This document shows positions 3,001-57,905 of a stretch of 64,000 nucleotides of DNA, piece after piece. A program made the translations under genes and the position numbers. Where the stretch lies: contig JAPJBO010001074.1 in the NCBI GenBank assembly GCA_030068145.1, forward strand, positions 1-64,000. Reading direction: 5' to 3'. Position 1 is the stretch's first letter; each line of letters opens with the position of its first letter. The DNA comes from Diplonema papillatum. Its lineage: Eukaryota > Euglenozoa > Diplonemea > Diplonemida > Diplonemidae. Below the pieces are notes generated by a model. The model was not told where the DNA came from, did not search any database, and saw only the letters and a list, made by a program, of their open reading frames with translations.

Positions 3001-6000
3001 TCGGTCGTCGACAGCCGCGGCGCCGCGGCGGCCGGCGCGAGCACCGGCCTGCTGACCCTGTTTTCGAACCGGTGGGTCCGCCTGCACCTCAACGTCTCGC
3101 TGCAGTCCGGCGCCGTCCGGGTGTTCCTCGGGCGGTCGAAGACGGAGAACGGCCAGTACGCCCTCGACGAGCAACCCGTCGAGCACTCCGCCGCCGCCGC
3201 CGGGAAGCTCCTCGTCCGTGCGGTCCCTTGGATGAGCGATCCGGTCACGTTCGGGACGCGGACGTCGCCGTTCTACGGGTTTCTCCGCGAAGTCGCCGTG
3301 TGGTCGGGCGGCGAGGGCGCGGCGGCGAAGGTGTACTTCGCGCGCCAGGACCTCTCGCAGGCGAGCGAGATGATCGCGTTCGCCGACCCGAGCGTCGGTT
3401 CGTGGGAGACCGCGACCGTCCCGCCGAAGGGCACGTCCTACGACGGCGTGTCGTCGAAGGAGGTGCCGACAGACCTGGGGTACTGGTCCGGCGAGCTCTG
3501 CGACGCGTGCAGGGAGGGGTATCACGGCGGGCTGTGCTCGAGCGAGAACTGCGCCTCCGACGATGAGTGCGGCGGGGGAGCGAACGCAACGGCGCCGCGG
3601 GGGGCGTGCGTGCGGGACGAGGCAAACGCGCTGTTCTTCGGGCAGTGCCTCTGCGCCGAGAACTACGACGGCGAAGCGTGCGACCGGTGCGAGTCCGCCC
3701 CGGTGCGCGCGGTGTACGTCGGCGGCGACCTCCGCTGCATCGTCGACTCGGACATCTGCCCGTCGGCGGCCCAGCTGGCCGCAAACCCGGGCGTGTACAC
3801 CACCGCAGGGACCCTCGACGACGCCGTGTGCGCGCTCGGGGGCAAAACGATACCCGGCGAGTACTTCGACTTCGAGGAGGAACCTCCGGTGGTCGACTGC
3901 ACGGTGGACGGCGTGCGGCGGTGCCTGCCGCCGTCGGTTAAGCACGACGGCTGCGGCTGCCCCACCTCTAGGCAGCCCGTGTGCAGCGGCGCGGGTGACG
4001 CCGCGAACGCGACGGAGTGCCCGTGCGATGGCGTGGCGCCGTACGACACGGCGGTGACGTACAACTGCAGGATGTACGCGAACCCCTTCGTCTCGTGCCC
4101 GAAGGGCGACGCGTGCAGGGACGCCGCTGGCGCGCCGGCGCCCACGTGCCAAGCCGGGACAGAGGGCCTGCGGCAGTACTCGAAGTTCTGCCTCAACCAG
4201 CTGTCCCGAGCGTGCGACGGCGCCGCGACGCCGACGTACGCGCACCTCGTAGACGTCCTCCGCTGGCTGCCGCGGACCGCGATGCGGTTTTTCGGCGAGT
4301 GCCCGAATCTCTGCCCCTCGCTGAACACCGGCACCGTGAAGACGACCGGCGGGCACTGCGGCCCGTGCCCTGTGGCTGGCCAAATTGGGGACAGCCAGAT
4401 CGACTGCGAAGGCGCGCTGTTCGACGTGCACGTGCCGCAGCAGGTGATGAAGGAGGACTTCTGCGGGTGCACCTCGCCTGTGATGCCGGTGTGCGACCCG
4501 ACGACGGTCGACTCGTGGAACACCAGCGTCCGCGGCACGCTGACCTGCAAGGAGACCTGCCCCGACTGGGCTGCGCTGTACGGCGCCGCCGGGTATGAAA
4601 CGGACGGCGACGCGGTGTTCATCAACTGCGGGGGATGGCCGGCGCCGGAGTGGGCGCAGCTGCCGTGTTCGCAGGACGGCCACGACCCGTGCGAGTGCCC
4701 GTTGCCCAGCTTTCGATGCACCGGGGGCACCGAGGGGACGTGCCCGGATAGCAGCGCATGCCCGCCGTGGGACGACGTCGCGGAGATCGACTGCAAAGGG
4801 GGGATCGCACCGGTGGTGAACAGGATAGGAGCCCATGTCTGCGGGTGCGCGTGGCCCCCGGACCCTGTGTGCAAATCCGGGACTTCCGCTGCCGCCTCGG
4901 CGGTGTGCCCAGTCGACTACACCCTGGCGGCGCCGTCGCTGAAGGACTGCGAAGGCAAACCGCTCCTCGAATCGGTCGCGTGGCGTCCCGGCTCGAGCCG
5001 GTGGCCGCTGACCCGGGGCTGCTCCGCCTGCAAGACGGACGTCAGCCCGAACACCGTGTGCCGCGCGGGGTCGCAGTGTCCCATTGTCAAGGCATGCCCT
5101 CCCGGCACCGACAAAGCCACTGGAGTTACCTGCGCATCGGTCGTCTGGGAGAGCATACAGTGCGGCGGAGCCGAACTCCCGCCGTACGAACAGCCAGACC
5201 GCCCCGAGTGCTGGTGCGCGCCCCCCGTGCAGTTCCGGTGCGAGGACAGCGACGGCTGCTTCGGGAACGCGACGAAGTGCGCACCTTACGTGTGCGGAGA
5301 CGGGCGCTTCGTGGCGCCGGTGCCGGCGGACGAGTGCAGAACGTCGTGCTCCGGGGACAACCACTGCGTCGAGGACTACATCTGCGTCGACGGGGGCTGC
5401 GTGCCGGAAGGCACGTCTGCGCCGCCTCTGGGCGGGTGCGCGGGGGACCCTTCGGTGTGCGAGCCGTACGGCTGCAACGTCGCGGCCGGCGCGTGCTTCG
5501 CGGAGTGCTGGACGGACAAGCACTGCTTCGGCGGCGCCGCGGGACCCGGCGGCGCGTCTGGTTACCGGTGTTCTTTCCCGACGCAGACGGGGCTGCCGGC
5601 CGTTCCTGCGTACCAGGTGCTGGCGGGCGGGTTGGAGGTGTTCAGGGAAATGCCCGGGAACCTCTGCGGCGCGTCCGTCTTCGACAGCGGCGCCGACGTC
5701 GCCGCCAAGGCCGGCGGCCGGTGCGTGTGGATGGAGTACGACCCCAACGCGTGCTACGACCAAGTCGGTTGTGCTCCGTACGCCTGCGGGAAGAACAATT
5801 CGCAAATCGCGTTTTCGAGCGCAATCTGCCGGACGTCGTGCTCGAACGACGCACACTGCAACTTCAAAGCCCACTGCAACAAGGACGGCGCCTGCGTCCC
5901 CGGCGCTCCCTCCGCCCCGGCCAGCTGCAGTGCGAAGGATTACGACTACTGCACGCCGTTCGTCTGCGGGGTGCACATTGCCCTCGCGCCGAAGGCGACC

Positions 6001-6363
6001 GCGCTTTGCAGGACCACCTGCGAGAGTGACGGGCAGTGTCAGTTGTTCTACACGTGCGTCTCGTACACGTGCGTCGCGACGCCGGTGGTCGCCGCCGCGT
6101 TCCAGCCGGTGCCGGCGGTCCCGCGGGCGTGCTACAAGCCGGGGCAGGAGCACGCCGGCGCGCCGTACAAGTGCCTGCGGGTGCCGCTCGCGCTCAACGG
6201 CGACCCGCAGGCGCGCTTCGCGTACGCGCTGCCGCCGGCGGCGCCGGCCGCCGTCGAGCCGGTGCCGAAGGCGTGTAAGGCGCACGCGGGGTGCGTGCCG
6301 TACCGGTGCGGGCCGAGGAGGGGGATACCCGACAAAGACATACCTGACGGATCCATGTGCCAG
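1..6363 (+). CDS. Giant secreted Cys-rich EGF/LamG-like protein, exon (5' end outside window)
   Basis: This exon is open from the left edge, so the true start lies outside; the Met at position 19 is probably internal. It ends at a CAG|gttgcg donor (6364). Modules in order, by nucleotide: a jelly-roll-like segment (about 570-900); a Cys cluster and EGF/tenascin-like module (about 1030-1430, with C-x2-C-x-D-G-F-Y-G-x2-C); a laminin-G/concanavalin-like sandwich (about 2850-3320); a second EGF-like module (about 3480-3700); about five Cys modules sharing a C-x-C-x(4-6)-P-x-C core (about 3930-5230); then repeats of the form C-x-P-Y/F-x-C ... C-x3-C-x6-C-x5-C-x4-C (from 5278). The last of these repeats is cut by the intron and finished by the next exon. 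Such architectures occur in extracellular matrix or adhesion proteins. The role here is inferred as secreted and structural or adhesive. Exact family unknown. Confidence 0.85.
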
Positions 6364-6812
6364 GTTGCGTTTTTCTCTCGCTCTGTCGTCTTTGATTTTT
6401 TTCTTGAAAGTGTGCTAGGTAGGGGACTAACAGGTATTCGACACGCGTCTACGGCTGACAAAAAACACTACCATTTTTTGACCTGGAATCGTTTTGTACA
6501 AAATACCTGAGGAGGCTGCCGGTTGCGAAATCTCAAGGGCGTGCTACAAGCCGGAGCAGGAGCACGTCGTTCGTCTGCGGGGTGCACATTGCACACCGTT
6601 GTCCTCGTCTACTCGAGCTGCTTCGGCATTTTGGATACAGCACATCCACCTCCTTAGAGATTTCGCAACTGGCAGTCTCCTCAAGTATTTCCTACAAAGC
6701 AGGTGCTTATACAAAAACACAGCAAAATGGTTCAGGATAGACTCATCATGAAGCCACAAAACAGTCGCACCTTTCCACCGTTACCCTCGTCTAAACACAC
6801 AAACACACGCAG
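6364..6812 (+). other. Intron 1 of the Cys-rich gene
   Basis: GT-AG phase-0 intron placed by restoring the last Cys repeat: the end of the upstream exon (SMCQ) joins VTCQVFDDC, matching the C-x3-C pattern of the preceding repeats. It contains the inverted-repeat element at 6493-6712. Confidence 0.85.
6493..6712. mobile_element. Small inverted-repeat element carrying fragments of the adjacent exon
   Basis: The two ends are inverted copies of about 45 bp of repeat family B: left 6493-6537, right about 6655-6712. The right arm read in reverse starts with the family's usual GCACCTGCTTTGTAGG end. Between them lie two pieces matching the gene's own first visible exon. Positions 6539-6566 match 6127-6154 (one mismatch), and 6562-6592 match 5951-5981 (one mismatch). 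The pieces are in reversed order relative to the source and joined at a shared GCACG. This resembles a Pack-type non-autonomous DNA transposon that captured host exon sequence. Confidence 0.65.
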
Positions 6813-26294: not shown

Positions 26295-27159
26295 TAGCCA
26301 AGATCTGTGATCGTACACATGCAATTCCCCGATGTAAAATGACCACATCAATTCCAGTTGTAGAAAGGCCACACTCGCATCCACAAGGCTATCGCTGTGC
26401 TTTGATGACAGACCCTTTCTGGCCTCGTTCTCGTTGCAAATACGACACTGAGAGGCAAGCAGCCAACGGCAGCATCGCACTTCACTAGACGACAACGTTC
26501 TTGGGGGCTACCAAGATGTGCCTCACCTCAACCTCAATAAGACCAAACCCCGGTGGTCGCGGAAAACACCAATAGCTCTGGGGATCCCGGGCAAATCTAG
26601 TCTCCCCATATGAGCGGGCACAAAAGGGCCCACCGCCCATCCCTTTCCCTTCGCTGTCTATCACGGTGTACCGCGTTTCACCATGGCCCATCAGGTCCAA
26701 CTAGCCCCTGAAGCTTCATAGTATTGCCGTTCATCACGGTGCATGGTCTACCAGAAGGCGGGCTGCTATAAATGCAAATTTTCAAGAACAACAACCGATC
26801 GACAACAGCGTACTAACCTCACTTCCGTTGCATCAAGAAAACAGGTGCCCGAAATGCAAACAAACAAAGGGAACACCAGTTCCGTTTTGCAACCCGTCTA
26901 TCCTTGCACCCCCCGCTCGCATTTTCATGTGGTCGGAAAGGTACACACACTTCACATTTTCTTTTCTCGCCTTATCTTGAACCTTTTTGAGTTCCACCAC
27001 ATCCCACTGCGTCAGACAAGGAATAGAACTGAGTTTCGTCTGGCACGAGAACACACGACTTTTTACAGAGTTTGTAGAGGAACAATATTCGTTTGACACG
27101 AGAACACACAGTCTGTCCGACAGAGCTTGCAGAGGAAGAGAGAAGAAAGCGGGGGGATA
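26295..27159. other. Intergenic, with duplicated 3' end of the LRR gene
   Basis: About 26498-26576 is a diverged copy of the LRR gene's last codons (26216-26290; CTTGGGGGCTACCAAGATGT, AAGACCAAACCCCGG, CGCGGAAAACACCA). Repeat F lies at 26645-26760 and a repeat-L-like stretch at 26772-26875. About 27048-27140 has two related GAGAACACAC ... AGAGGAA words just upstream of the arabinofuranosidase. Confidence 0.7.
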
Positions 27160-29223
27160 ATGATGTTCCAGGCGGCCCTAGCGGTCGCTGTGCTCGCGCA
27201 GAACACAGCGACCGTGCACAACACGAAGGGAGCTGCGATCAAGACGAACCACTTTTCGATGTTCTACGAAACGGAGATCAACTTCGGCGGGGAGGGCGGA
27301 TTGTATGGCGAACTCGTGTGGAACCGCGATTTCGAAGCTCTCGGCAGAGGGAAGCTCAGCGTCGACGACCCGCCGGCCAGGGCCAGCCGCGACGAGCGGG
27401 TCGCCGAGCTTAGGCAAATGAGGAGGCAAGCTGCAGAGGAGCCCGCCTCCGTCGGCGACCAGCTGGACCCGGGCGAACCGGCGGCAGTCCCGGGCGTCAT
27501 TGCGCCGTGGACAGCCGTCGGCGGCGTCAGCGCGAAGTCGGTCAACACGACACAGCCTTTCATGTCGAACCCTTGGGTCGTTAGCTTCACGGCCTCGGCC
27601 GCCGGGCAAGGCATCGAAAACCCCGGCTACTGGGGAATGAACCTGAGGACAGAAACAGCCTTCGACTTCTCGTTCTACGGCATGGGAAACGGTGCCGTCA
27701 TGTACGCGCAGCTCATGTGCGGTACACAGGTCATTTCTGAGTCGCCGAAATTCGAACCAATGACTTCGCAGTGGCAGATGTTCAATGCCTCATTGCAACC
27801 CACCTCGCCCTGCTTCGGTGGCAGTCTCCGTGTGCTGACTGCTACACCGAACGTGGCCATCTACTTGGACCACGTTTCCATGTTTCCGGGTGATGCTGTG
27901 TTGGGTCTCTTCCGCCCAGACTTGTTCGCGTTTCTCAAAGAATATGCACCGCCGATGATGCGCCTTCCTGGGGGTAACTACCTCGAAGGCACCGGTCCGA
28001 GGACCCGCTGGCAGTGGAAGAGAAGCATCGGCCCCAAGGAGACGAGGAGTGGGCACTACAACAGCGCCTGGAGGTACTGGGTTACCGATGGATTGGGTCT
28101 CATGGAGCTCCTTCGCCTCACAGAGCACTTGAACGCGCAGCCTTTGGTGTCCATCTACACCGGTTTCTCGCTTGGCAGACAGTACGTTCCCCTGAACGAG
28201 AGCCAGCAATTCGTTGATGATGCTATGGACCTTATGGAATACTCAAACGGTGGAGTGAACACCGTGTGGGGGCAAAGGAGAGTAGAAGACGGCCATCCAA
28301 CATCCTTCAATGTGTCGATGCTCGAAATCGGAAACGAAGAAACTCAGCAAGGACAAGAAGGATACGGTGGCCACTACAAAATCATCATGGATCCTTTGCG
28401 ACAAAAGTATCCCGACATTTTTATAGTCGCATCGGGCTTGGAGATTGCCACAAATGGAGGTAGGTCGACTTCGTGTCTCCCGTGTGTCGGTGGTTGCGAT
28501 ATGGCACCTCAGCACTGTGATGCTTGGGATGAGCACACATACGATAATGCCACTTCGATGGCGAGTTTAGTCGACCTGTATGACAATTACTACTCACCGT
28601 CCTTCTGCCAGACGGTGAACGGGACTCAGTGCCCTCCTGTGTACGTCCTTGAATTCGCATGTGCTTTCCAACCACTCACAATTCAATCCGCTGTGGCGGA
28701 AGGCATGTTCTTGATTGGTACTGAGAGGAACGCTGATGTTGTTCATGCCACCGCATTCGCTCCCCTCTTCGTGAACGTCCGTGGACAGCAGTGGGGGTAC
28801 AACCTGATCAACTTCAACGCGTCACACGTTTTCGCGCTTCCAAGCTACTCTTCACAGCTGATCCTAAAGCGGAGCATTGGAGACCACACCTTGCAAACGA
28901 ACATCAGCAGCCACGAGCAGGGTGTGCAGCGCTGGTCTGCGATTGCGAGCTTCAAGGGAACCAACACTGTCATCGTGAAAGTGGCCAATTTTGAGTTCTT
29001 AAACTTCACAGTCGACATCAGCTTTGAAGGCTTCCCCTCACCTCTTACTTTCCCGAGCACTGCCAACTACATGGGCAGCAGCGACGCTTCAATGGCCAAC
29101 ACTTTGGACAACCCGAACGTGGTTTCCATCACCAGCGTGCCTCTGAAGGTCAACGGTCAAACAGTTTCCATCACCATGGACACTTATGCTGTGGCTGTCT
29201 TCGAGGCCACTTTGAATGCATGA
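27160..29223 (+). CDS. Secreted GH51 alpha-L-arabinofuranosidase
   Basis: A retaining glycosidase that removes terminal alpha-L-arabinofuranosyl groups from arabinan or arabinoxylan. The 687-residue frame has no intron. It starts with a short hydrophobic signal peptide (MMFQAALAVAVLAQ). The family N-terminal motif FYETEINFGGEGGLYGELVW follows, then a beta-sandwich insert of carbohydrate-binding type. The TIM barrel carries MRLPGGNYLEGT, the acid/base Glu393 in EIGNEE and the nucleophile Glu498 in VLEFACAF. APLFVNVRGQQW and a C-terminal beta domain complete it, so domain order and length match plant and bacterial GH51 enzymes. EFA replaces the more usual EYA. The start at 27160 or 27163 is chosen over 27127 because it puts the signal peptide at the N terminus. 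Lack of introns beside intron-rich genes may indicate transfer or a retrocopy. Confidence 0.93.
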   Translation: MMFQAALAVAVLAQNTATVHNTKGAAIKTNHFSMFYETEINFGGEGGLYGELVWNRDFEALGRGKLSVDDPPARASRDERVAELRQMRRQAAEEPASVGDQLDPGEPAAVPGVIAPWTAVGGVSAKSVNTTQPFMSNPWVVSFTASAAGQGIENPGYWGMNLRTETAFDFSFYGMGNGAVMYAQLMCGTQVISESPKFEPMTSQWQMFNASLQPTSPCFGGSLRVLTATPNVAIYLDHVSMFPGDAVLGLFRPDLFAFLKEYAPPMMRLPGGNYLEGTGPRTRWQWKRSIGPKETRSGHYNSAWRYWVTDGLGLMELLRLTEHLNAQPLVSIYTGFSLGRQYVPLNESQQFVDDAMDLMEYSNGGVNTVWGQRRVEDGHPTSFNVSMLEIGNEETQQGQEGYGGHYKIIMDPLRQKYPDIFIVASGLEIATNGGRSTSCLPCVGGCDMAPQHCDAWDEHTYDNATSMASLVDLYDNYYSPSFCQTVNGTQCPPVYVLEFACAFQPLTIQSAVAEGMFLIGTERNADVVHATAFAPLFVNVRGQQWGYNLINFNASHVFALPSYSSQLILKRSIGDHTLQTNISSHEQGVQRWSAIASFKGTNTVIVKVANFEFLNFTVDISFEGFPSPLTFPSTANYMGSSDASMANTLDNPNVVSITSVPLKVNGQTVSITMDTYAVAVFEATLNA

Positions 29224-36767: not shown

Positions 36768-37327
36768 GTAAACCGATGGTCCCCTGGAACCAGCGATAGC
36801 ATGAAAATGTACAAACCGATCGTCCCCTGGAAACAGCGGTAGCATGAAAACGTACAAACCGATCGTCCCTTGGAAACAGCGGTCGCATGAAAACGTACAA
36901 ACCGATCGTCCCCTGGAAACAGCGGTAGCATGAAAACGTACAAACCGATCGTCCCCTGGAAACAGCGGTAGCATGAAAACGTACAAACCGTTCGTCCCCT
37001 GGAAACAGCGGTAGCATGAAAACGTACAAACCGATCGTCCCCTGGAAACAGCGGTCGCATGAAAACGTACAAACCGATCGTCCCCTGGAAACAGCGGTAG
37101 CATGAAAACGTACAAACCGTTCGTCCCCTGGAAACAGCGGTAGCATGAAAACGTACAAACCGATCGTCCCCTGGAAACAGCGGTAGCATGAAAACGTACA
37201 ACCGATCGTCCCCTGGAACCAGCGGTAGCATGACAACGTACAAACCGATCCCTGGAAACAGCGGTAACATGAAAACGTACAAACCGATCGTCCCCTGGAA
37301 CCAGCGGTAGCATGAAAACGTACATTC
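36768..37327. repeat. 43-bp tandem array, about 13 copies
   Basis: The unit contains ACAAACCGATCGTCCCCTGG and AACAGCGGTAGCATGAAAAC. Copies differ by single bases. It has no stop in any minus-strand frame, which creates three long spurious open frames. Confidence 0.95.
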
Positions 37328-39967: not shown

Positions 39968-41832
39968 GTATGCCCCTTTTCGTTTTGTTCGAGCACCTGC
40001 TTTGTGGGACGCCAGTTGCAAAACGTCAAATCACTGCAACGGCAACAAGAGTCGACGTGAAGCGGGAGAGACTGAGCACCTGCTTTGTGGGACGCCAGTT
40101 GCAAAGCTTCAAACCACTGCAACGGCAACAAGAGTCGACGTGAAGCGGGAGAGACTGAGCACCTGCTTTGTGGGACGCCAGTTACAAAGCTTCAAACCAC
40201 TGCAACGGCAACAAGAGTCGACGTGAAGCGGGAGAGACTGAGCACCTGCTTTGTGGGACGCCAGTTGCAAAACGTCAAACCACTGCAACGGCAACAAGGG
40301 TCGACGTGAAGCGGGAGAGACTGAGCACCTGCTTTGTGGGACGCCAGTTACAAAGCTTCAAACCACTGCAACGGCAACAAGAGTCGACGTGAAGCGGGAG
40401 AGACTGAGCACCTGCTTTGTGGGACGCCAGTTACAAAGCTTCAAACCACTGCAACGGCAACAAGAGTCGACGTGAAGCGGGAGAGACTGAGCACCTGCTT
40501 TGTGGGACGCCAGTTGCAAAGCTTCAAACCGCAACGGCAACAAGAGTCGACGTGAAGCGGGAGAGACTGAGCACCTGCTTTGTGGGACGCCAGTTGCAAA
40601 ACGTCAAGCCACTGCAACGGCAACAAGAGTCGGCGTGAGGCGGGAGAGACGAACTACAGAAACGGAACGAGCCGTGCACCAAGAGAAGACCGGGACGTTG
40701 GGATCGCGCGAAACTGAAGAAGGAGTCTCGAGCCGAGCTGCAGGTTGAAGGCCTTGCCGCCGGAGGGTGGCTGGGACTACGCGGCCGCGGAGAAGTGGGA
40801 GCGTCGGCTCTCTCCACAAATGTGGAAGCGTTGGTAATTGCGGCTACCGGGCGCGCCTGTACGCGGTGGTCCCCTAACCCACATGCACAATGCCGGATTA
40901 GCGTCTGTCAAGAGCATGCGTGGCACAGTTGTGTGTTAAAGGTGAGATGAGAGGCATCGACTCAGCCCCTCGTCCGAAACGCAGGTACCGGCGGTATCTG
41001 GCGAACTTTCCGTTTTCACATTTTTTCCCCTCCAACGGCAACCCCCTGCACACTCCCTTCAACCAAACCACCTGGTTCTTGGGTGGATAAGCGATTGTGC
41101 TCGGGAAACTGTTAAGCAATCGGGTGTTTGTACGTCTCCGAATGACGTGTCGAGGCGGTGGGGGGCTCTGTTGTAAAGTTAGGCCAGAGTCTTCCTTTCA
41201 CACGGTTTACTGCCACAGGGTTAATTCTAGGGGGGTCCAGCGGACCCCTCAAAAAAGTACATCGTAACGACCAGCGCCCAGCGAGACTAGAGGCAGCAGT
41301 TAAAGTTCGGGAAGTAGCGGCCGCTGACGAACTATGAAGCGCCCGCATTGGAAGAGTAAATCTGAGAACCACCATAAACGCATCTGTGTCGGTCGCGAGA
41401 ACCCCGAAAATGACTAGACACACACTCACGCCTGTGCTGCTACTACCACAGATACAAAGTGCCTGCCAATGTACGATACCATGAAGGAATTCTTTTGACG
41501 ATGGTCACCCGGAGACTTTAAAGTTCCGGCTCCTCAAGCGAACTTTAACTCAAAACCCCCAATGCCATTTAGGGGACCCCACAAGGGTTCACAACGGAGT
41601 GACACACCACCCCGAAACGAGCTGCACCTCCTCATTGTTTTCAACTCATCCAACCCTCCTCCTACTCAGTCTCCATTTGGCCTCTACGGCAACTGGAGAC
41701 TTTGAAATACCAAGCTTCTGATCCACAAATAACGATACACCCCGAATCGTGTATTCGTAGTTGTAGCTGTTTCTCTCCCCGCCAGCCTTCGTCATACCCC
41801 CCCCGGGCGTCGTCATTGCATCCATAACACAG
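39968..41832 (+). other. DRC3 intron b
   Basis: Holds the 83-bp tandem array (39991-40652), otherwise little: a short repeat E (41505-41560) and an AK6-upstream-like stretch (41640-41735). Confidence 0.8.
39991..40652 (+). repeat. 83-bp tandem array, eight copies
   Basis: The unit starts GAGCACCTGCTTTGTGGGAC, then GCCAGTTGCAAA, then GCAACAAGAGTCGACGTGAA. Copies start at 39991, 40074, 40157, 40240, 40323, 40406, 40489 and 40569; the seventh is 3 nt short. The first half resembles the end of repeat B. Confidence 0.95.
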
Positions 41833-44689: not shown

Positions 44690-45115
44690 TTCAACCATTG
44701 GTGCTGCACACGGCAACCCCATGTCCGCTGTGCTCTGCGGAGTTTACCTCGCAGATTGCCACCGTAAAAAGAAGACTAGTCAGTGCTGCCTAGCGAGTCG
44801 CAGTCACAATCAGGGCGAGTGCCCTGAGTTTTTAAACTGATTGCTCAGACACGGTGGTAGGGGCTTTCTCCCCGTGACGGATTCGCCTGTGCTCTACTAG
44901 CACGGGTGGTCCTGGCTGTGACGAGCTACGAACAGCCGCCTGACAAACCAGAATCACACCGCTGTCCTGTCTGCAGACACTCAGGTTCCGCGCTGATGAT
45001 GGTCCGCCTTATGTGTCCGCCTTATGTGTCCGTGGCTTAAGGACCGAAACACGGCGCAGATGGGACCAGTGCGGTGTTGAGCACAATACCCATTCCAAGC
45101 ACGTTCTTGCAATCC
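44690..45115 (+). repeat. Repeat C, longest copy
   Basis: Starts near GTGCTGCACACGGCAACC and ends near CATTCCAAGCACGTTCTTGC. Other copies share the 3' end but start at different internal points (8365, 33461, 35600, 36048, 38080), a pattern typical of 5'-truncated retroposed elements. Confidence 0.8.
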
Positions 45116-45159
45116 GACATCCGACCATATTATCCCGACGAGAACTGACACTTGTACGT

Positions 45160-46739
45160 GTAAAGCCATGTCAACCGCTACAGCCCGGTCAACCTGTAAA
45201 GCCATGTCAACCGCTACAGCTAGGTCACTGTAAAGCCATGTCAACTGCTACAGCCAGGTCAACCTGTAAAGCCATGTCAACCGCTACAGCTAGGTCAACC
45301 TGTAAAGCCATGTCAACCGCTACAGCTAGGTCAACCTGTAAAGCCATGTCAACCGCTACAGCTAGGTCAACCTGTAAAGCCATGTCAACCGCTACAGCTA
45401 GGTCAACCTGTAAAGCCATGTCAACCGCTACAGCTAGGTCAACCTGTAAAGCCATGTCAACCGCTACAGCTAGGTCAACCTGTAAAGCCATGTCAACCGC
45501 TACAGCTAGGTCAACCTGTAAAGCCATGTCAACCGCTACAGCTAGGTCAACCTGTAAAGCCATGTCAACCGCTACAGCTAGGTCAACCTGTAAAGCCATG
45601 TCAACCGCTACAGCTAGGTCAACCTGTAAAGCCATGTCAACCGCTACAGCTAGGTCAACCTGTAAAGCCATGTCAACCGCTACAGCTAGGTCAACCTGTA
45701 AAGCCATGTCAACCGCTACAGCTAGGTCAACCTGTAAAGCCATGTCAACCGCTACAGCTAGGTCAACCTGTAAAGCCATGTCAACCGCTACAGCTAGGTC
45801 AACCTGTAAAGCCATGTCAACCGCTACAGCTAGGTCAACCTGTAAAGCCATGTCAACCGCTACAGCTAGGTCAACCTGTAAAGCCATGTCAACCGCTACA
45901 GCTAGGTCAACCTGTAAAGCCATGTCAACCGCTACAGCTAGGTCAACCTGTAAAGCCATGTCAACCGCTACAGCTAGGTCAACCTGTAAAGCCATGTCAA
46001 CCGCTACAGCTAGGTCAACCTGTAAAGCCATGTCAACCGCTACAGCTAGGTCAACCTGTAAAGCCATGTCAACCGCTACAGCTAGGTCAACCTGTAAAGC
46101 CATGTCAACCGCTACAGCTAGGTCAACCTGTAAAGCCATGTCAACCGCTACAGCTAGGTCAACCTGTAAAGCCATGTCAACCGCTACAGCTAGGTCAACC
46201 TGTAAAGCCATGTCAACCGCTACAGCTAGGTCAACTGTAAAGCCATGTCAACCGCTACAGCTAGGTCAACCTGTAAAGCCATGTCAACCGCTACAGCTAG
46301 GTCAACCTGTAAAGCCATGTCAACCGCTACAGCTAGGTCAACCTGTAAAGCCATGTCAACCGCTACAGCTAGGTCAACCTGTAAAGCCATGTCAACCGCT
46401 ACAGCTAGGTCAACCTGTAAAGCCATGTCAACCGCTACAGCTAGGTCAACCTGTAAAGCCATGTCAACCGCTACAGCTAGGTCAACCTGTAAAGCCATGT
46501 CAACCGCTACAGCTAGGTCAACCTGTAAAGCCATGTCAACCGCTACAGCTAGGTCAACCTGTAAAGCCATGTCAACCGCTACAGCTAGGTCAACCTGTAA
46601 AGCCATGTCAACCGCTACAGCTAGGTCAACCTGTAAAGCCATGTCAACCGCTACAGCTAGGTCAACCTGTAAAGCCATGTCAACCGCTACAGCTAGGTCA
46701 ACCTGTAAAGCCATGTCAACCGCTACAGCTAGGTCAACC
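45160..46739 (+). repeat. 36-bp tandem array, about 44 copies
   Basis: The unit has AACCTGTAAAGCCATGTCAA + CCGCTACAGCTAGGTC. Copies are almost identical, with variants only at the first few units and a 1-bp deletion at about 46233. Because 36 is a multiple of 3, it is open on both strands as 12-residue repeats (KAMSTATARSTC and MALQVDLAVAVD). Confidence 0.97.
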
Positions 46740-46766
46740 GGTGACTCGAAAATACCGGCTTCTTAA

Positions 46767-47034
46767 CCACATACGGATGGAGGGTGGTGTTAATTTTGGG
46801 AAAATGGACGTTTCAAGGCAAACCTTGGGTCATACTCAAAAGGGGGTTTCGTAGGTCAAAAATGGGAACCGAGGGGTGCATTTGAAAGATTTCGTGGCAG
46901 GTCTTTCAAATGCGCACCTCGACGCTGAATGAATACACATGGAAGTGACCCAGGACGGGCACCCGTGGCGTCTTGCAGATACCCGCAAATTAATGAATTA
47001 ACTACGCCATATGGCGTAGTTCGTCCGTATGTGG
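46767..47034. mobile_element. TTAA-flanked inverted-repeat element (piggyBac-type MITE), copy 2
   Basis: TTAA at 46763-46766 and 47035-47038. Ends CCACATACGGATG and the complement of GTCCGTATGTGG. A palindrome AACTACGCCATATGGCGTAG plus TT sits just inside the right end. An internal hairpin of ATTTGAAAGA/TCTTTCAAAT lies at 46881-46912. Confidence 0.82.
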
Positions 47035-51270: not shown

Positions 51271-52334
51271 ACATTAATCCAATTACGGTACTAAAAAACA
51301 GGACCTTTGTCATTTCCTCGAAAGCGATCCGCATAGAGGCCGCGAGGCTCGTGTCACAGAAGACACCACCCGTCATGGACACACGAAACACGAAGTGTGG
51401 CACCTTCCGGCATCACGCAGCCCCAGAGGGCGACCTGTGACGTATCCATGGTCGGGGAACATCGCCGCATGCATCTCCACGAAAAGTGCGCGCGCGTGTG
51501 AATACCACCCTCCCCCGCCGCCTCCATTTATTGTTCATTTCTTTTTTGTGAGTTTTTTTCCCCCCCGTTCGGCTCTCTTCTTTTCCGCCGTCTGCGATGC
51601 TGCTGAGCAGCGGAGATCGCTCGTTCAAGGGGGAGGAGGTTGCCCGGCGCACTCTTTCAAATGGAGCGAATCAGGAGATATGAGCCGGTCCATCCCCTCT
51701 TGATAGACCGTGATAGACCGAATAATATGCAGCACCGGGGAATTCGATGCAGCTCTAGGGACGAGGGATGAACCTGATAGACCGTGGTGGACCGTGATTC
51801 ACTGTGATAAACAGCGGCAGGCACTTCGATGCAGTTTCAAGGGGTAGGGACGGACCGGCTCAAGATAACCGGCAGGAACCGGCCGTGATGCTCAAACCAT
51901 CGGAACGTTGACGGCTCCTCATTGCGTTACGAGGGCGCGACTATCGTCCAGTCTTGGACACAGCCTCATTCGAGGCTGGAAACTGGCAATACCGTGTCAT
52001 ACGACTGAGTGTCTCGTTAAGGCTAAGAACCGGTAGTTGCCGTATCGTACGACTGAGTTCCTAGAAAAACCACCACTATCGGAAAAGAGAGTGCTCAAAA
52101 TATGACTAACACGCCACAAACCCGACCAAACCTGGTCTGATCTCAGGGTCTGATCTGCTAGAATTGGGTGCTGCCAAAATTTTGCACTTTTCCCAAAGGA
52201 ATTGCCATTGCCTAGGAAAATGGATTTTTGAAGATGAAATTTTTGCTTGGGATTTTTCACTGTGACATACGCCGGACAGATCCATAACCCGCATATTTAT
52301 ATAGTAGCCTGCAGTGTCGGCAACAAGCAACACA

Positions 52335-52431
<97 letters not shown>

Positions 52432-52589
52432 CGTTGGGCTATATTCTGCGTGGGATTACCCACAACTGAGATTTAACACACGCACACCGCACTGCAACTA
52501 CTAATTGTAGCACCGCACCCGTATTGCAATACGATATAATTACGGATATATTCAACCTGCGCAAACCATAAGCAGCACCACAAATACAC
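51271..52589. other. Intergenic: repeat F and CA microsatellite
   Basis: Repeat F (51697-51850, +). An uninterrupted CA tract of about 95 bp (about 52335-52428) could adopt non-B DNA. No gene seen. Confidence 0.75.
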
Positions 52590-52930
52590 GAAAAGAGACG
52601 GTCAGACGGTACCAAGAAGATAGGCAGTCACCTTCTGCGGCACCATACTGAGGAGGGCCTAGGTATGTGGACAATGGCCGAAACCACCAATGACCAACAA
52701 CCAAGGTACCCACCGATCCTCTTACCTCGTGTAACCACCACTCTTACGACACTCAGAGCACAAAGGATATCTTCCCATAGCGACGAAGGTCACCCGGAGA
52801 CTTTAAAACCCCGGGGAACTTTCACTCTAAAAATAATGTGCGTGCCAATATTCACGATACGACGATGGCCACCCGGAGACTTTATAACCCCGGGGCCTCA
52901 AGCGAGCTGTCACCCTTTCAAAAATGGTAA
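52590..52930 (+). repeat. Repeat E copies upstream of the AK6 array
   Basis: 52590-52830 matches 12070-12300. 52856-52930 is a second 3' part (GGCCACCCGGAGACTTTATA ... GCGACTC) that becomes the start of the AK6 repeat unit. Confidence 0.82.
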
Positions 52931-53279
52931 AGCGACTCTCCTACATCTTAGCCCGATACAGCAAAGCATCCCCCTCCTACTGTTCCACACCGCACACGAA
53001 GCTGAGCCGTACAAGCAACAAATACAGTTCGTGAGGCACCAATCTGTACGCCCATACAAGATCGTCGGCAACACAAAAAGCGCTTGAATGATAAACGTTG
53101 CACCGGAAATCTGCACGAAACAGTCTGAAAGACCCCTAACTTTTCTCAACCCTCTCAACCCCCCTCCTTACCCAAGCCTCTACGGTCAAGCGGAGGCTTT
53201 AAAATACCGACCTTCTAACACAACACTGCCAGGCGAAAAAAGTAACCCGGCAAAAGGAAGCAGAGGGGGGCGCAGAGAA

Positions 53280-53603
53280 ATGTTTGATCTACCGCAGCCG
53301 AAGGTGCCGAACATCCTCATCACCGGGACCCCTGGCGTCGGCAAGAGCAGCCTCGCGAAGGCCATTTCGGAGGCCACGCCGCTGACGCACATCGCCGTCG
53401 GGAAGATCGTGAAGGTAGAGGGCCTCGTCGAGGGCAAAGACGAGAAGTTCGACACGCTCATCCCCGACGAAGACCGCCTGCTGGACCACCTGGATCACGA
53501 TGGAGGGCGGCAAGACCCCTTTCGAAGATGGTCACCCGGAGACTTTATCACCCCGGGGCCTCAATCGAACTTTCACCCTTTAAGCGACTCTACCAAGTTT
53601 TAG
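53280..53603 (+). pseudogene. AK6 first-exon copy 1, truncated
   Basis: Keeps the P-loop GTPGVGKSS and about 71 AK6 residues, then runs into repeat E and stops. It differs from the others by MFDLP for MSDLP and IAVGK for IDVGK. Confidence 0.9.
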
Positions 53604-53970
53604 CCCGATCCAGCAAAGCATCCCCCCTCCCACTGTTCCACACCGCACACGAAGCTGAGCCATGCAAGCAACTATTTCGTAAGGCACCAATCTGTACGCC
53701 CATGCAAGATCGTCGGCAACACAAAAGCGCTTGAATGGTGTGCATCACAAACGTTGTACCGGAAATCTGCACGAAACAGTCTGGCAACCCACTCACTTTT
53801 CTCAACCCTCTCAACCCCTCTCCTTACCCAAGCCTCTACGGTCAACCGGTGACTTTAAAGTACCGACCTTCTATTCCACAAATAACGCTAGTCTAGAAGC
53901 ACCGCATCAGGCATACAACCAGGCGAAAAAAGTAACCCGGCAAAAGGGAAGTAGAGGGGGGCGCAGAGAA

Positions 53971-54426
53971 ATGTCTGATCTACCGCAGCCGAAGGTGCCG
54001 AACATCCTCATCACCGGGACCCCTGGCGTCGGCAAGAGCAGCCTCGCGAAGGCCATTTCGGAGGCCACGCCGCTGACGCACATCGACGTCGGGAAGATCG
54101 TGAAGGTAGAGGGCCTCGTCGAGGGCAAAGACGAGAAGTTCGACACGCTCATCCCCGACCAAGACCGCCTGCTGGACCACCTGGATCACGATGGAGGGCG
54201 GCAAGACCCCTTTCGAAGATGGTCACCCGGAGACTTTATCACCCCGGGGCCTCAATCGAACTTTCACCCTTTAAAGCGACTCTACCAAGTTTTAGCCCGA
54301 TCCAGCAAAGCATCCCCCCTCCCACTGTTCCTCACCGCACACGAAGCTGAGCCATGCAAGCAACTATTTCGTAAGGCACCAATCTGTACGCCCATGCAAG
54401 ATCGTCGGCAACACAAAAGCGCTTGA
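53971..54426 (+). pseudogene. AK6 first-exon copy 2, truncated
   Basis: P-loop intact. The type is PLTHIDVGKIVKVEGLVEGK with IPDQDR. The extra A in the following repeat lengthens the spurious tail. Confidence 0.9.
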
Positions 54427-54661
54427 ATGGTGTGCATCACAAACGTTGTACCGGAAATCTGCACGAAACAGTCTGGCAACCCACTCACTTTCTCAACCCT
54501 CTCAACCCCTCTCCTTACCCAAGCCTCTACGGTCAACCGGTGACTTTAAAGTACCGACCTTCTATTCCACAAATAACGCTAGTCTAGAAGCACCGCATCA
54601 GGCATACAACCAGGCGAAAAAAGTAACCCGGCAAAAGGGAAGTAGAGGGGGGCGCAGAGAA

Positions 54662-54985
54662 ATGTCTGATCTACCGCAGCCGAAGGTGCCGAACATCCTC
54701 ATCACCGGGACCCCTGGCGTCGGCAAGAGCAGCCTCGCGAAGGCCATTTCGGAGGCCACGCTGCTGACGCACATCGACGTCGGGAAGATCGTGAAGGAAG
54801 AGGGCTTCGTCGAGGGCAAAGACGAGAAGTTCGACACGCTCATCCCCGACGAAGACCGCCTGCTGGACCACCTGGATCACGATGGAGGGCGGCAAGACCC
54901 CTTTCGAAGATGGTCACCCGGAGACTTTATCACCCCGGGGCCTCAATCGAACTTTCACCCTTTAAGCGACTCTACCAAGTTTTAG
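54662..54985 (+). pseudogene. AK6 first-exon copy 3, truncated
   Basis: The type is LLTHIDVGKIVKEEGFVEGK with IPDEDR; truncated as copy 1. Confidence 0.9.
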
Positions 54986-55352
54986 CCCGATCCAGCAAAG
55001 CATCCCCCCTCCCACTGTTCCACACCGCACACGAAGCTGAGCCATGCAAGCAACTATTTCGTAAGGCACCAATCTGTACGCCCATGCAAGATCGTCGGCA
55101 ACACAAAAGCGCTTGAATGGTGTGCATCACAAACGTTGTACCGGAAATCTGCACGAAACAGTCTGGCAACCCACTCACTTTTCTCAACCCTCTCAACCCC
55201 TCTCCTTACCCAAGCCTCTACGGTCAACCGGTGACTTTAAAGTACCGACCTTCTATTCCACAAATAACGCTAGTCTAGAAGCACCGCATCAGGCATACAA
55301 CCAGGCGAAAAAAGTAACCCGGCAAAAGGGAAGTAGAGGGGGGCGCAGAGAA

Positions 55353-55808
55353 ATGTCTGATCTACCGCAGCCGAAGGTGCCGAACATCCTCATCACCGGG
55401 ACCCCTGGCGTCGGCAAGAGCAGCCTCGCGAAGGCCATTTCGGAGGCCACGCCGCTGACGCACATCGACGTCGGGAAGATCGTGAAGGTAGAGGGCCTCG
55501 TCGAGGGCAAAGACGAGAAGTTCGACACGCTCATCCCCGACCAAGACCGCCTGCTGGACCACCTGGATCACGATGGAGGGCGGCAAGACCCCTTTCGAAG
55601 ATGGTCACCCGGAGACTTTATCACCCCGGGGCCTCAATCGAACTTTCACCCTTTAAAGCGACTCTACCAAGTTTTAGCCCGATCCAGCAAAGCATCCCCC
55701 CTCCCACTGTTCCTCACCGCACACGAAGCTGAGCCATGCAAGCAACTATTTCGTAAGGCACCAATCTGTACGCCCATGCAAGATCGTCGGCAACACAAAA
55801 GCGCTTGA
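55353..55808 (+). pseudogene. AK6 first-exon copy 4, truncated
   Basis: Appears identical to copy 2, 1,382 bp away, including flanks. Confidence 0.9.
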
Positions 55809-56043
55809 ATGGTGTGCATCACAAACGTTGTACCGGAAATCTGCACGAAACAGTCTGGCAACCCACTCACTTTCTCAACCCTCTCAACCCCTCTCCTTAC
55901 CCAAGCCTCTACGGTCAACCGGTGACTTTAAAGTACCGACCTTCTATTCCACAAATAACGCTAGTCTAGAAGCACCGCATCAGGCATACAACCAGGCGAA
56001 AAAAGTAACCCGGCAAAAGGGAAGTAGAGGGGGGCGCAGAGAA

Positions 56044-56367
56044 ATGTCTGATCTACCGCAGCCGAAGGTGCCGAACATCCTCATCACCGGGACCCCTGGC
56101 GTCGGCAAGAGCAGCCTCGCGAAGGCCATTTCGGAGGCCACGCTGCTGACGCACATCGACGTCGGGAAGATCGTGAAGGAAGAGGGCTTCGTCGAGGGCA
56201 AAGACGAGAAGTTCGACACGCTCATCCCCGACGAAGACCGCCTGCTGGACCACCTGGATCACGATGGAGGGCGGCAAGACCCCTTTCGAAGATGGTCACC
56301 CGGAGACTTTATCACCCCGGGGCCTCAATCGAACTTTCACCCTTTAAGCGACTCTACCAAGTTTTAG
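56044..56367 (+). pseudogene. AK6 first-exon copy 5, truncated
   Basis: Appears identical to copy 3, 1,382 bp away. Confidence 0.9.
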
Positions 56368-56734
56368 CCCGATCCAGCAAAGCATCCCCCCTCCCACTGT
56401 TCCACACCGCACACGAAGCTGAGCCATGCAAGCAACTATTTCGTAAGGCACCAATCTGTACGCCCATGCAAGATCGTCGGCAACACAAAAGCGCTTGAAT
56501 GGTGTGCATCACAAACGTTGTACCGGAAATCTGCACGAAACAGTCTGGCAACCCACTCACTTTTCTCAACCCTCTCAACCCCTCTCCTTACCCAAGCCTC
56601 TACGGTCAACCGGTGACTTTAAAGTACCGACCTTCTATTCCACAAATAACGCTAGTCTAGAAGCACCGCATCAGGCATACAACCAGGCGAAAAAAGTAAC
56701 CCGGCAAAAGGGAAGTAGAGGGGGGCGCAGAGAA

Positions 56735-57190
56735 ATGTCTGATCTACCGCAGCCGAAGGTGCCGAACATCCTCATCACCGGGACCCCTGGCGTCGGCAAG
56801 AGCAGCCTCGCGAAGGCCATTTCGGAGGCCACGCCGCTGACGCACATCGACGTCGGGAAGATCGTGAAGGTAGAGGGCCTCGTCGAGGGCAAAGACGAGA
56901 AGTTCGACACGCTCATCCCCGACCAAGACCGCCTGCTGGACCACCTGGATCACGATGGAGGGCGGCAAGACCCCTTTCGAAGATGGTCACCCGGAGACTT
57001 TATCACCCCGGGGCCTCAATCGAACTTTCACCCTTTAAAGCGACTCTACCAAGTTTTAGCCCGATCCAGCAAAGCATCCCCCCTCCCACTGTTCCTCACC
57101 GCACACGAAGCTGAGCCATGCAAGCAACTATTTCGTAAGGCACCAATCTGTACGCCCATGCAAGATCGTCGGCAACACAAAAGCGCTTGA
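56735..57190 (+). pseudogene. AK6 first-exon copy 6, truncated
   Basis: Appears identical to copies 2 and 4. Confidence 0.9.
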
Positions 57191-57425
57191 ATGGTGTGCA
57201 TCACAAACGTTGTACCGGAAATCTGCACGAAACAGTCTGGCAACCCACTCACTTTCTCAACCCTCTCAACCCCTCTCCTTACCCAAGCCTCTACGGTCAA
57301 CCGGTGACTTTAAAGTACCGACCTTCTATTCCACAAATAACGCTAGTCTAGAAGCACCGCATCAGGCATACAACCAGGCGAAAAAAGTAACCCGGCAAAA
57401 GGGAAGTAGAGGGGGGCGCAGAGAA

Positions 57426-57905
57426 ATGTCTGATCTACCGCAGCCGAAGGTGCCGAACATCCTCATCACCGGGACCCCTGGCGTCGGCAAGAGCAGCCTC
57501 GCGAAGGCCATTTCGGAGGCCACGCCGCTGACGCACATCGACGTCGGGAAGATCGTGAAGGAAGAGGGCTTCGTCGAGGGCAAAGACGAGAAGTTCGACA
57601 CGCTCATCCCCGACGAAGACCGCCTGCTGGACCACCTAGAGCCCCTCATGATGGAGGGCGGCAAGGTCGTCGACTACCACTCTTCCGAGCTGTTCCCGGA
57701 GAGGTGGTTTTCGCTGGTCATCGTCCTCCGCGCCGGCACGGCGTGCCTATTCGACCGACTGGCCGCCCGAGGCTACTCGGAGGTCAAGCGGCAGGAGAAC
57801 TTGGACTGTGAAATTTTCGGCATTCCCTCCGAGGAGGCGAAGTCTTCCTACCCGTCCGAAATCGTGCGCGAGGCGCAAAACGAGACGATCGAGCAAATGG
57901 TATAG
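57426..57905 (+). CDS. AK6: Adenylate kinase isoenzyme 6 (Fap7/CINAP), the only full copy
   Basis: A nuclear/cytosolic P-loop NMP kinase/ATPase that acts with Rps14 in 18S rRNA maturation. It has the Walker A GTPGVGKS (residues 16-23), IDVGKIVKEEGFVEGKDEKF, IPDEDR, VVDYHSSELFPERWF (81-95), LRAGTACLFDRLAARGYSEV and the short LID ENLDCEIF, all in family order. The frame stops after residue 159, about 13 residues short of human AK6 (172), and lacks the C-terminal W-x-x-x-W helix. A donor directly at 57901 (ATG|gtatag) suggests one more exon, which I did not find. The start at 57426 is chosen because it gives the family N terminus; the upstream open frame is repeat-derived. Confidence 0.95.
   Translation: MSDLPQPKVPNILITGTPGVGKSSLAKAISEATPLTHIDVGKIVKEEGFVEGKDEKFDTLIPDEDRLLDHLEPLMMEGGKVVDYHSSELFPERWFSLVIVLRAGTACLFDRLAARGYSEVKRQENLDCEIFGIPSEEAKSSYPSEIVREAQNETIEQMV

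What the first reader, a model, noticed from the sequence alone, without database searches (positions are those of the whole stretch)
52856..57905. Seven-copy AK6 first-exon array arranged as a higher-order dimer repeat
Seven AK6 start regions lie exactly 691 bp apart. Alternate copies match each other better than neighbours (2=4=6 and 3=5, and 7 in its shared part), so the amplifying unit is a 1,382-bp dimer, like satellite higher-order repeats but built from an essential ribosome-assembly gene. Each copy carries the same upstream region and an intact P-loop, so up to six truncated proteins or six decoy promoters could be expressed. Near-identity points to very recent expansion.
Basis: partly seen in the sequence, partly recalled or inferred. 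Interest (0 to 1): 0.78.

Follow-up and report, generated by a model that had tools for sequence, protein, structure and literature searches.

The report
Tandem AK6 gene-start fragments in Diplonema
In a marine protist the start of a ribosome-assembly gene is repeated six times in front of the one intact gene; this looks real but is an already described habit of this genome, most likely leftover DNA made by recombination and not a working device.

Summary
Seven AK6/Fap7 start regions lie exactly 691 bp apart; copies 2, 4 and 6 are identical, as are 3 and 5, and the two types differ by 5 substitutions and 2 indels, so the recent unit of expansion is a 1,382-bp dimer. Only copy 7 runs through the kinase region; no other complete AK6 was found in the genome. 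Copies 1-6 share one frameshift after codon 72 and join back to upstream DNA.

The genome paper already describes dozens of genes with adjacent repeats, many with 5'-UTR plus part of the CDS repeated; its SufC example is supported by PacBio reads and absent from mature mRNA. 'Decoy promoters' fits badly: genes are thought to be co-transcribed, with leaders added by trans-splicing. All six coding differences in codons 1-70 change the amino acid, fitting decay.

Most likely: a partial tandem duplication of a repeat-rich 5' flank, later expanded as dimers by unequal recombination. New member of a known kind. Transcription and exact copy number were not testable.

The parts
52330..52431 (.). (AC)51 microsatellite left of the locus
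   Evidence: TRF
52560..52833 (+). dispersed repeat with copies of 90-94% identity elsewhere (left edge not determined: the query began here); holds the motif GGTCACCCGGAGACTTTAAAACCCCGGGG, relatives of which recur in each unit
   Evidence: 40 of 3560 first-look candidates scored; motif copies (D6)
52853..53279 (+). diverged upstream region of copy 1 (outer edge of the array)
   Evidence: 79-84% identity to the inner units, alignment
53280..53603 (+). copy 1: truncated AK6 ORF, 107 aa (72 AK6 codons, then shifted frame)
53515..53926 (+). joined upstream segment of the unit (between exon fragment and next copy), largely dispersed-repeat pieces
53787..53891 (+). 105-bp end of a dispersed element, one fetched copy of which has terminal inverted repeats; contains the most pyrimidine-rich AG in the unit (AG ending at 53832), a candidate spliced-leader acceptor 138 nt upstream of the ATG of copy 2
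   Evidence: TIRs at L016; pyrimidine scan (candidate only)
53971..54426 (+). copy 2 (type A): truncated ORF, 151 aa
54662..54985 (+). copy 3 (type B): truncated ORF, 107 aa
55353..55808 (+). copy 4 (type A): identical to copy 2
56044..56367 (+). copy 5 (type B): identical to copy 3
56735..57190 (+). copy 6 (type A): identical to copies 2 and 4
57426..57905 (+). copy 7: the AK6/Fap7 gene (159-aa open frame with P-loop and VVDYH); stop at 57903-57905, or a first exon ending before GTATAG at 57900
   Evidence: no exon 2 above background

Best explanation
This is a tandem array of 5' fragments of the only AK6 gene found in Diplonema papillatum, one of the 'repeat-bounded' gene structures described for that genome. 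SHOWN: six 691-bp units, each with about 235 nt of AK6 coding start joined to DNA homologous to the upstream flank, stand in front of one intact gene; the upstream DNA contains pieces of dispersed repeats; inner units alternate between two types and are identical within type. INFERRED: (1) a partial tandem duplication joined a point inside the AK6 coding region to a repeat-derived sequence upstream, leaving a broken 5' copy before the intact gene; (2) the broken copy was multiplied and two types diverged by a few changes; (3) recently, unequal recombination or replication slippage with a two-unit period added 1,382-bp steps, giving A-B-A-B-A-(7). The truncated copies are most likely non-functional: transcribed through as part of a polycistronic precursor and discarded or degraded, with the leader for AK6 mRNA added at an acceptor just upstream of copy 7.
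For: Array anatomy. One complete AK6 in 271 Mb; all 7 protein matches lie at this locus (9 candidates, all scored). A 5-nt deletion and a junction shared by copies 1-6 point to a single founding broken copy. 6 of 6 differences in codons 1-70 are non-synonymous, none private to copy 7; probability 0.12-0.19 without selection versus 0.00005-0.0002 at omega 0.1. Genome identity: C1 is 1,009,103 bp, the length printed for contig tig00022654_12; 624 exact hits of a recalled spliced-leader core with 0 in the reversed control; no match to the phycobilisome or chlorophyll-binding families. Published precedent in the same genome with PacBio and RNA-seq data (PMC10161547 section 7). Haploid lab strain with fewer than 600 SNVs in the 142-Mb repeat-free part, so alternating alleles are unlikely. 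Tandem arrays are common: 9 TRF rows of period 6 or more and 100 bp or more in the window, this array included and two rows overlapping; 14 of 20 fetched loci of 3.0-4.3 kb hold an array of period 20 or more (loci chosen for a dispersed repeat, not at random; L024 and L025 are largely the same sequence).
Against: No reads or RNA data could be examined, so silence of these six copies is by analogy with SufC. All six ORFs remain open for 107 or 151 aa; this fits recency but also fits translation. Six changes are a small sample: moderate constraint (omega 0.5, probability 0.03-0.05) or adaptive change is not excluded. The first breakpoint is not resolved: about 20 nt at the junction match neither parent clearly.
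Confidence: 0.83

Rival explanations
1. The array is a set of spliced-leader decoys or pseudo-cistrons: each unit carries its own acceptor and short ORF, so that trans-splicing and polyadenylation are spread over seven sites and copy number tunes how much AK6 mRNA is made.
For: Copies 1, 2, 3 and 7 were scanned (4-6 are identical to 2 or 3): each has a pyrimidine-rich AG (0.84 pyrimidine, the best in the unit) upstream of the ATG, followed by an open frame. Essentially all mRNAs of this species are thought to receive a leader.
Against: In the published SufC case RNA-seq indicates that the array is not in mature mRNA. The acceptor is inferred from composition only, and it would give a 5'-UTR of 138 nt where about 70 is usual; the AGs at -79 to -60 have only 0.48-0.60 pyrimidine. 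No sign of constraint on the coding part.
Confidence: 0.06
2. Assembly artefact: the true array is shorter and the identical dimers were added by the assembler (this concerns the count, and does not exclude the best explanation).
For: Exact identity of the dimers; words of 2,720 bases needed for uniqueness. Illumina and PacBio assemblies were made separately and merged, and I do not know which gave this contig. The authors warn of artificially duplicated or collapsed repeats. Contigs C2890 and C2708 share 3,684 bp at 100% identity.
Against: The genome is haploid, and long reads verified a nearly 5-kb array of the same kind. Even if the dimer loop is over-counted, the neighbour pairs 1-A, A-B, B-A, A-7 need at least five units if reads exceed about 310 bp (reasoned).
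Confidence: 0.12
3. Truncated AK6 proteins are made and act, for example as dominant competitors of AK6.
For: Open frames of 107 and 151 aa with an intact P-loop.
Against: [quoted passage not shown] the fragments end at codon 72 and so lack at least the Walker B, LID and C-terminal parts (domain limits recalled). V46 (copies 1, 2, 4, 6) and Q64 (copies 2, 4, 6) replace residues that are E in copy 7 and in chains 1y63 and 3iij. The tail is read in a shifted frame.
Confidence: 0.03

Closest known systems
Repeat-bounded genes of Diplonema papillatum, e.g. DIPPA_19968 (SufC homologue), Valach et al. 2023, PMC10161547 (abstract, sections 5, 7, 8, 9 and 12 of 25 found passages seen; supplement not seen)
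   Same: Same genome; 5' region including 5'-UTR and part of the CDS repeated in tandem upstream of one intact gene; array of nearly 5 kb there, about 4.4 kb here.
   Different: SufC: about 400-bp unit, 12-13 degenerate copies (71-96% identity, the most distal 47%). AK6: 691-bp unit, six fragments, inner ones identical within two alternating types (a dimer step). The paper's main text has no mention of AK6, Fap7, adenylate kinase or higher-order. I did not examine the SufC array itself.
NBPF / Olduvai three-unit higher-order repeats in human (PMC9584774; short abstract and section 5 seen)
   Same: Gene-derived units of kb scale arranged in a higher-order repeat.
   Different: Units there lie within genes, have two exons each and encode a protein domain; neighbouring units differ by about 20%. 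Here units lie before the gene, and the two types differ by about 1%.
Partial tandem duplications and chimeric genes in Drosophila yakuba (PMC5460883; abstract and section 7 seen)
   Different: There shuffled regulatory elements can raise expression of chimeras; in Diplonema regulation is thought not to act mainly at transcription start.
Tetris foldback element and its satellite in Drosophila virilis (PMC4079207; abstract seen)
   Same: Terminal-inverted-repeat DNA found inside tandem arrays.
   Different: There repeats inside the TIR became the satellite. Here one element end is only part of the unit. TRF arrays overlapped this element in 2 of 20 fetched loci; L024/L025 (one sequence) hold it three times about 740-800 bp apart. 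Seeding by the element is open, not shown.

Membership tests
Repeat-bounded gene (Diplonema papillatum) | lies in the D. papillatum nuclear genome | tested here: met
Repeat-bounded gene (Diplonema papillatum) | part of 5'-UTR/upstream and CDS start repeated in tandem next to one intact gene | tested here: met
Repeat-bounded gene (Diplonema papillatum) | array supported by long reads | not testable with these tools
   no reads available; published for the SufC example
Repeat-bounded gene (Diplonema papillatum) | array absent from mature mRNA | not testable with these tools
   no RNA data; published for the SufC example
AK6 / Fap7 / hCINAP | P-loop, VDYH, ERWF and RGY segments as in solved AK6 (motif names recalled) | tested here: met
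   copy 7: alignments to 1y63 and 3iij; Pfam AAA_18. The C-terminal end after residue 159 was not found
AK6 / Fap7 / hCINAP | same features in copies 1-6 | tested here: not met
   AK6 match ends at codon 72 in all six; profile covers 1-64 of 128 in the three truncated proteins scanned, copies 1, 2 and 3; copies 4, 5, 6 are identical to 2, 3, 2
Higher-order repeat | multi-unit blocks more alike than neighbouring units | tested here: met
   A versus B 5 mismatches plus 2 indels; within type 0
Higher-order repeat | long array of many identical higher-order blocks, as in centromere satellites | tested here: not met
   only 2.5 to 3 dimers; the whole unit matches at this one locus
Promoter array | gene-specific transcription start in each unit | not testable with these tools
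   argued against by published one-way gene clusters with leader addition

The most novel reading that the evidence does not exclude
The array is a copy-number dial acting on RNA and not on transcription: six upstream pseudo-cistrons, each with a transposon-derived spliced-leader acceptor and a short AK6 frame, compete with the real gene for trans-splicing, and dimer-wise recombination resets the number quickly.
Probability: 0.05. Interest if true: 0.65.

Novelty: new member of a known kind. Interest (0 to 1): 0.25.

Why it matters
It is a clean, young example of how 5' gene fragments pile up before intact genes in a diplonemid, with enough markers to propose the order of steps (one founding broken copy, two types, dimer expansion). 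Because genes here depend on trans-splicing, such arrays would be a natural test of whether surplus acceptor sites cost or tune expression. It also warns that automatic annotation may call truncated AK6 paralogues that are probably not genes.

Tried and rejected
Second exon of AK6: no candidate scored above background in 57.9-64 kb (best 28, other stretches of the window up to 34) or to the contig end at 71,254 (best 28 against 27 on the other strand). The gene may simply end at 159 aa, or the last exon is too short to recognise.

Brown alga as source: my first guess from size and GC; dropped after no chlorophyll-binding family was found, then replaced by Diplonema.

A splice donor in copies 1, 2, 4 and 6 (AAG|GTAGAG): weak beyond GTA by recalled consensus; not pursued. 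Copy 1 as a crossover between A and B: possible, but inheritance before later changes in A explains it as well.

Transposon seeding of the array: the unit contains one end of a TIR element; 2 of 20 element loci had a TRF array over it, and L024/L025 hold the element three times. Left open.

Rfam: no match in the window at gathering scores. Comparison with the SufC array: the search did not complete, so no second array of this kind was examined.

Literature: 10 searches. No listed title or shown start of an abstract concerned an AK6 array; several listings were capped (for example 10 of 252), many papers are not in the library, and supplements could not be read.
Full report
OBSERVATION. Seven units start 691 bp apart, with ATGs at 53280 + 691n. 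TRF with long periods reports period 691, 6.4 copies, 98% match. In the unit alignment, copies 2, 4 and 6 are identical and copies 3 and 5 are identical; the two types differ by 5 substitutions and 2 single-base indels; copy 1 differs from copies 2-6 by 13-14 substitutions. At a lag of 1,382 bp, 2,719 bp are identical (53425-56143).

WHAT EACH UNIT CONTAINS. From the ATG, 72 codons of AK6, then a 5-nt shortening relative to copy 7 that shifts the frame, then the end of the exon fragment at 53514 (GGCGGCAAG), then DNA homologous to the region upstream of copy 1. The predicted products have 107 aa (copies 1, 3, 5) or 151 aa (copies 2, 4, 6). All six share the deletion and the junction, so they most likely descend from one broken copy. 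Copy 7 has the full kinase region: 159 aa, Pfam AAA_18 E 5.5e-31, best PDB matches 1y63 (Leishmania by its label) and 3iij (the coilin-interacting ATPase, human by recall). All 7 protein matches in the 271-Mb genome lie here, and only copy 7 is complete. I could not find a further exon.

UPSTREAM DNA. The segment between units is a mosaic. A 105-bp piece (53787-53891) is the end of a dispersed element: 39 places elsewhere match it at 142 bits or more, with 40 of 2,016 first-look candidates scored; one fetched copy has terminal inverted repeats (L016). The middle piece (about 53601-53726) has relatives of 74-82% identity at 33 other places among 40 matches, 40 of 359 candidates scored (ten of these loci fetched). 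Left of copy 1 lies another dispersed repeat of at least 274 bp. The stretch between the element end and the ATG is only about 79 bp; no match to it elsewhere was listed, and one weak extension was seen in L023.

WHICH ORGANISM. No match to the phycobilisome family or the chlorophyll-binding family; each control rang only in Synechococcus. A recalled spliced-leader core gave 624 exact hits, 0 in the reversed control. The held genome's largest contig is 1,009,103 bp, the length printed for contig tig00022654_12 of Diplonema papillatum (PMC10161547 section 9). The last contig, C2910, is 10,003 bp, so the held set is probably the published 6,181 contigs cut at 10 kb (inference). I take the identity as settled.

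WHAT THE GENOME PAPER SAYS. Section 7: dozens of gene models have adjacent sequence repeats; in many, part of the 5' region with 5'-UTR and CDS is repeated in tandem; the SufC homologue has 12 copies in the text and 13 in the legend, supported by PacBio reads, and RNA-seq indicates that the array is not in mature mRNA. Section 9: genes stand in one-way clusters, probably co-transcribed, and essentially all mRNAs carry a spliced leader. Section 5: the strain is judged haploid with very few variants. The main text does not mention AK6 or 'higher-order'. I did not see the supplement.

INTERPRETATION. The finding is a new member of a described kind. 'Decoy promoter' does not suit a genome with polycistronic transcription; the relevant signal would be the leader acceptor. 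Each of copies 1, 2, 3 and 7 (4-6 being identical to 2 or 3) has a pyrimidine-rich AG 138 nt (103 nt in copy 1) before the ATG, so acceptor competition is conceivable; this is composition, not evidence of use, and the usual 5'-UTR of about 70 bp would rather suit nearer, less pyrimidine-rich AGs. The coding differences point to decay: 6 of 6 in codons 1-70 change the amino acid and none is private to copy 7. Outside that stretch copy 7 alone differs at codons 71 (silent) and 72. Six of six is expected with probability 0.12-0.19 without selection, 0.03-0.05 at omega 0.5 and 0.00005-0.0002 at omega 0.1, so strong constraint is disfavoured and moderate constraint is not excluded. Two of the changes (E46V, E64Q) hit residues that are E in chains 1y63 and 3iij too.

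HISTORY (inferred). One founding duplication, spread, divergence into types A and B, and a recent expansion in two-unit steps. Zero differences in 2,719 bp bound the divergence of the dimers below 0.0011 at 95%. The outermost copy is the most diverged, as the SufC legend reports for its most distal repeat.

LIMITS. Copy number rests on the assembly: words of 2,720 bases are needed for uniqueness. Long reads of a haploid can do this, but short-read and long-read assemblies were merged and I do not know the source of this contig; the authors warn about repeat artefacts; and two contigs share 3,684 identical bases. If reads exceed about 310 bp, the distinct neighbour pairs need at least five units. 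No RNA evidence was available. The comparison with the SufC array, which would show whether dimer steps are common, could not be run.

VERDICT. Observation confirmed; mechanism ordinary for this genome; the dimer step is a small extra over the published example.

Noticed in passing
45159-46739: 44 copies of a 36-bp repeat at 99% match inside a 613-aa open frame (45013-46854).
   Followed up: partly
36770-37324 and 39991-40650: Two more minisatellite arrays, period 43 x13 and 83 x8, 94-95% match.
   Followed up: no
27127-29223: Open frame of 698 aa with alpha-L-arabinofuranosidase domains; fits the polysaccharide-degrading gene set reported for this species (abstract).
   Followed up: no
about 59.6 kb: Short stretch resembling a retroelement reverse transcriptase, seen by eye in the three-frame translation, not searched.
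   Followed up: no
L046, L047, L048, L049: The recalled spliced-leader core occurs 624 times, against 110 SL RNA genes at 90% identity or more in the paper. In 3 of the 4 loci looked at (L046, L047, L049) the leader is not followed by GT, so many copies may be pseudogenes or leader-bearing retrocopies.
   Followed up: partly
L024 and L025: Contigs C2890 and C2708 share 3,684 bp at 100% identity in opposite orientation: redundancy or a very young repeat.
   Followed up: no
19-6510 (+) and 604-6285 (-): Very long open frames on both strands over the same stretch (2163 and 1893 aa) with no Pfam match at E 0.001.
   Followed up: no
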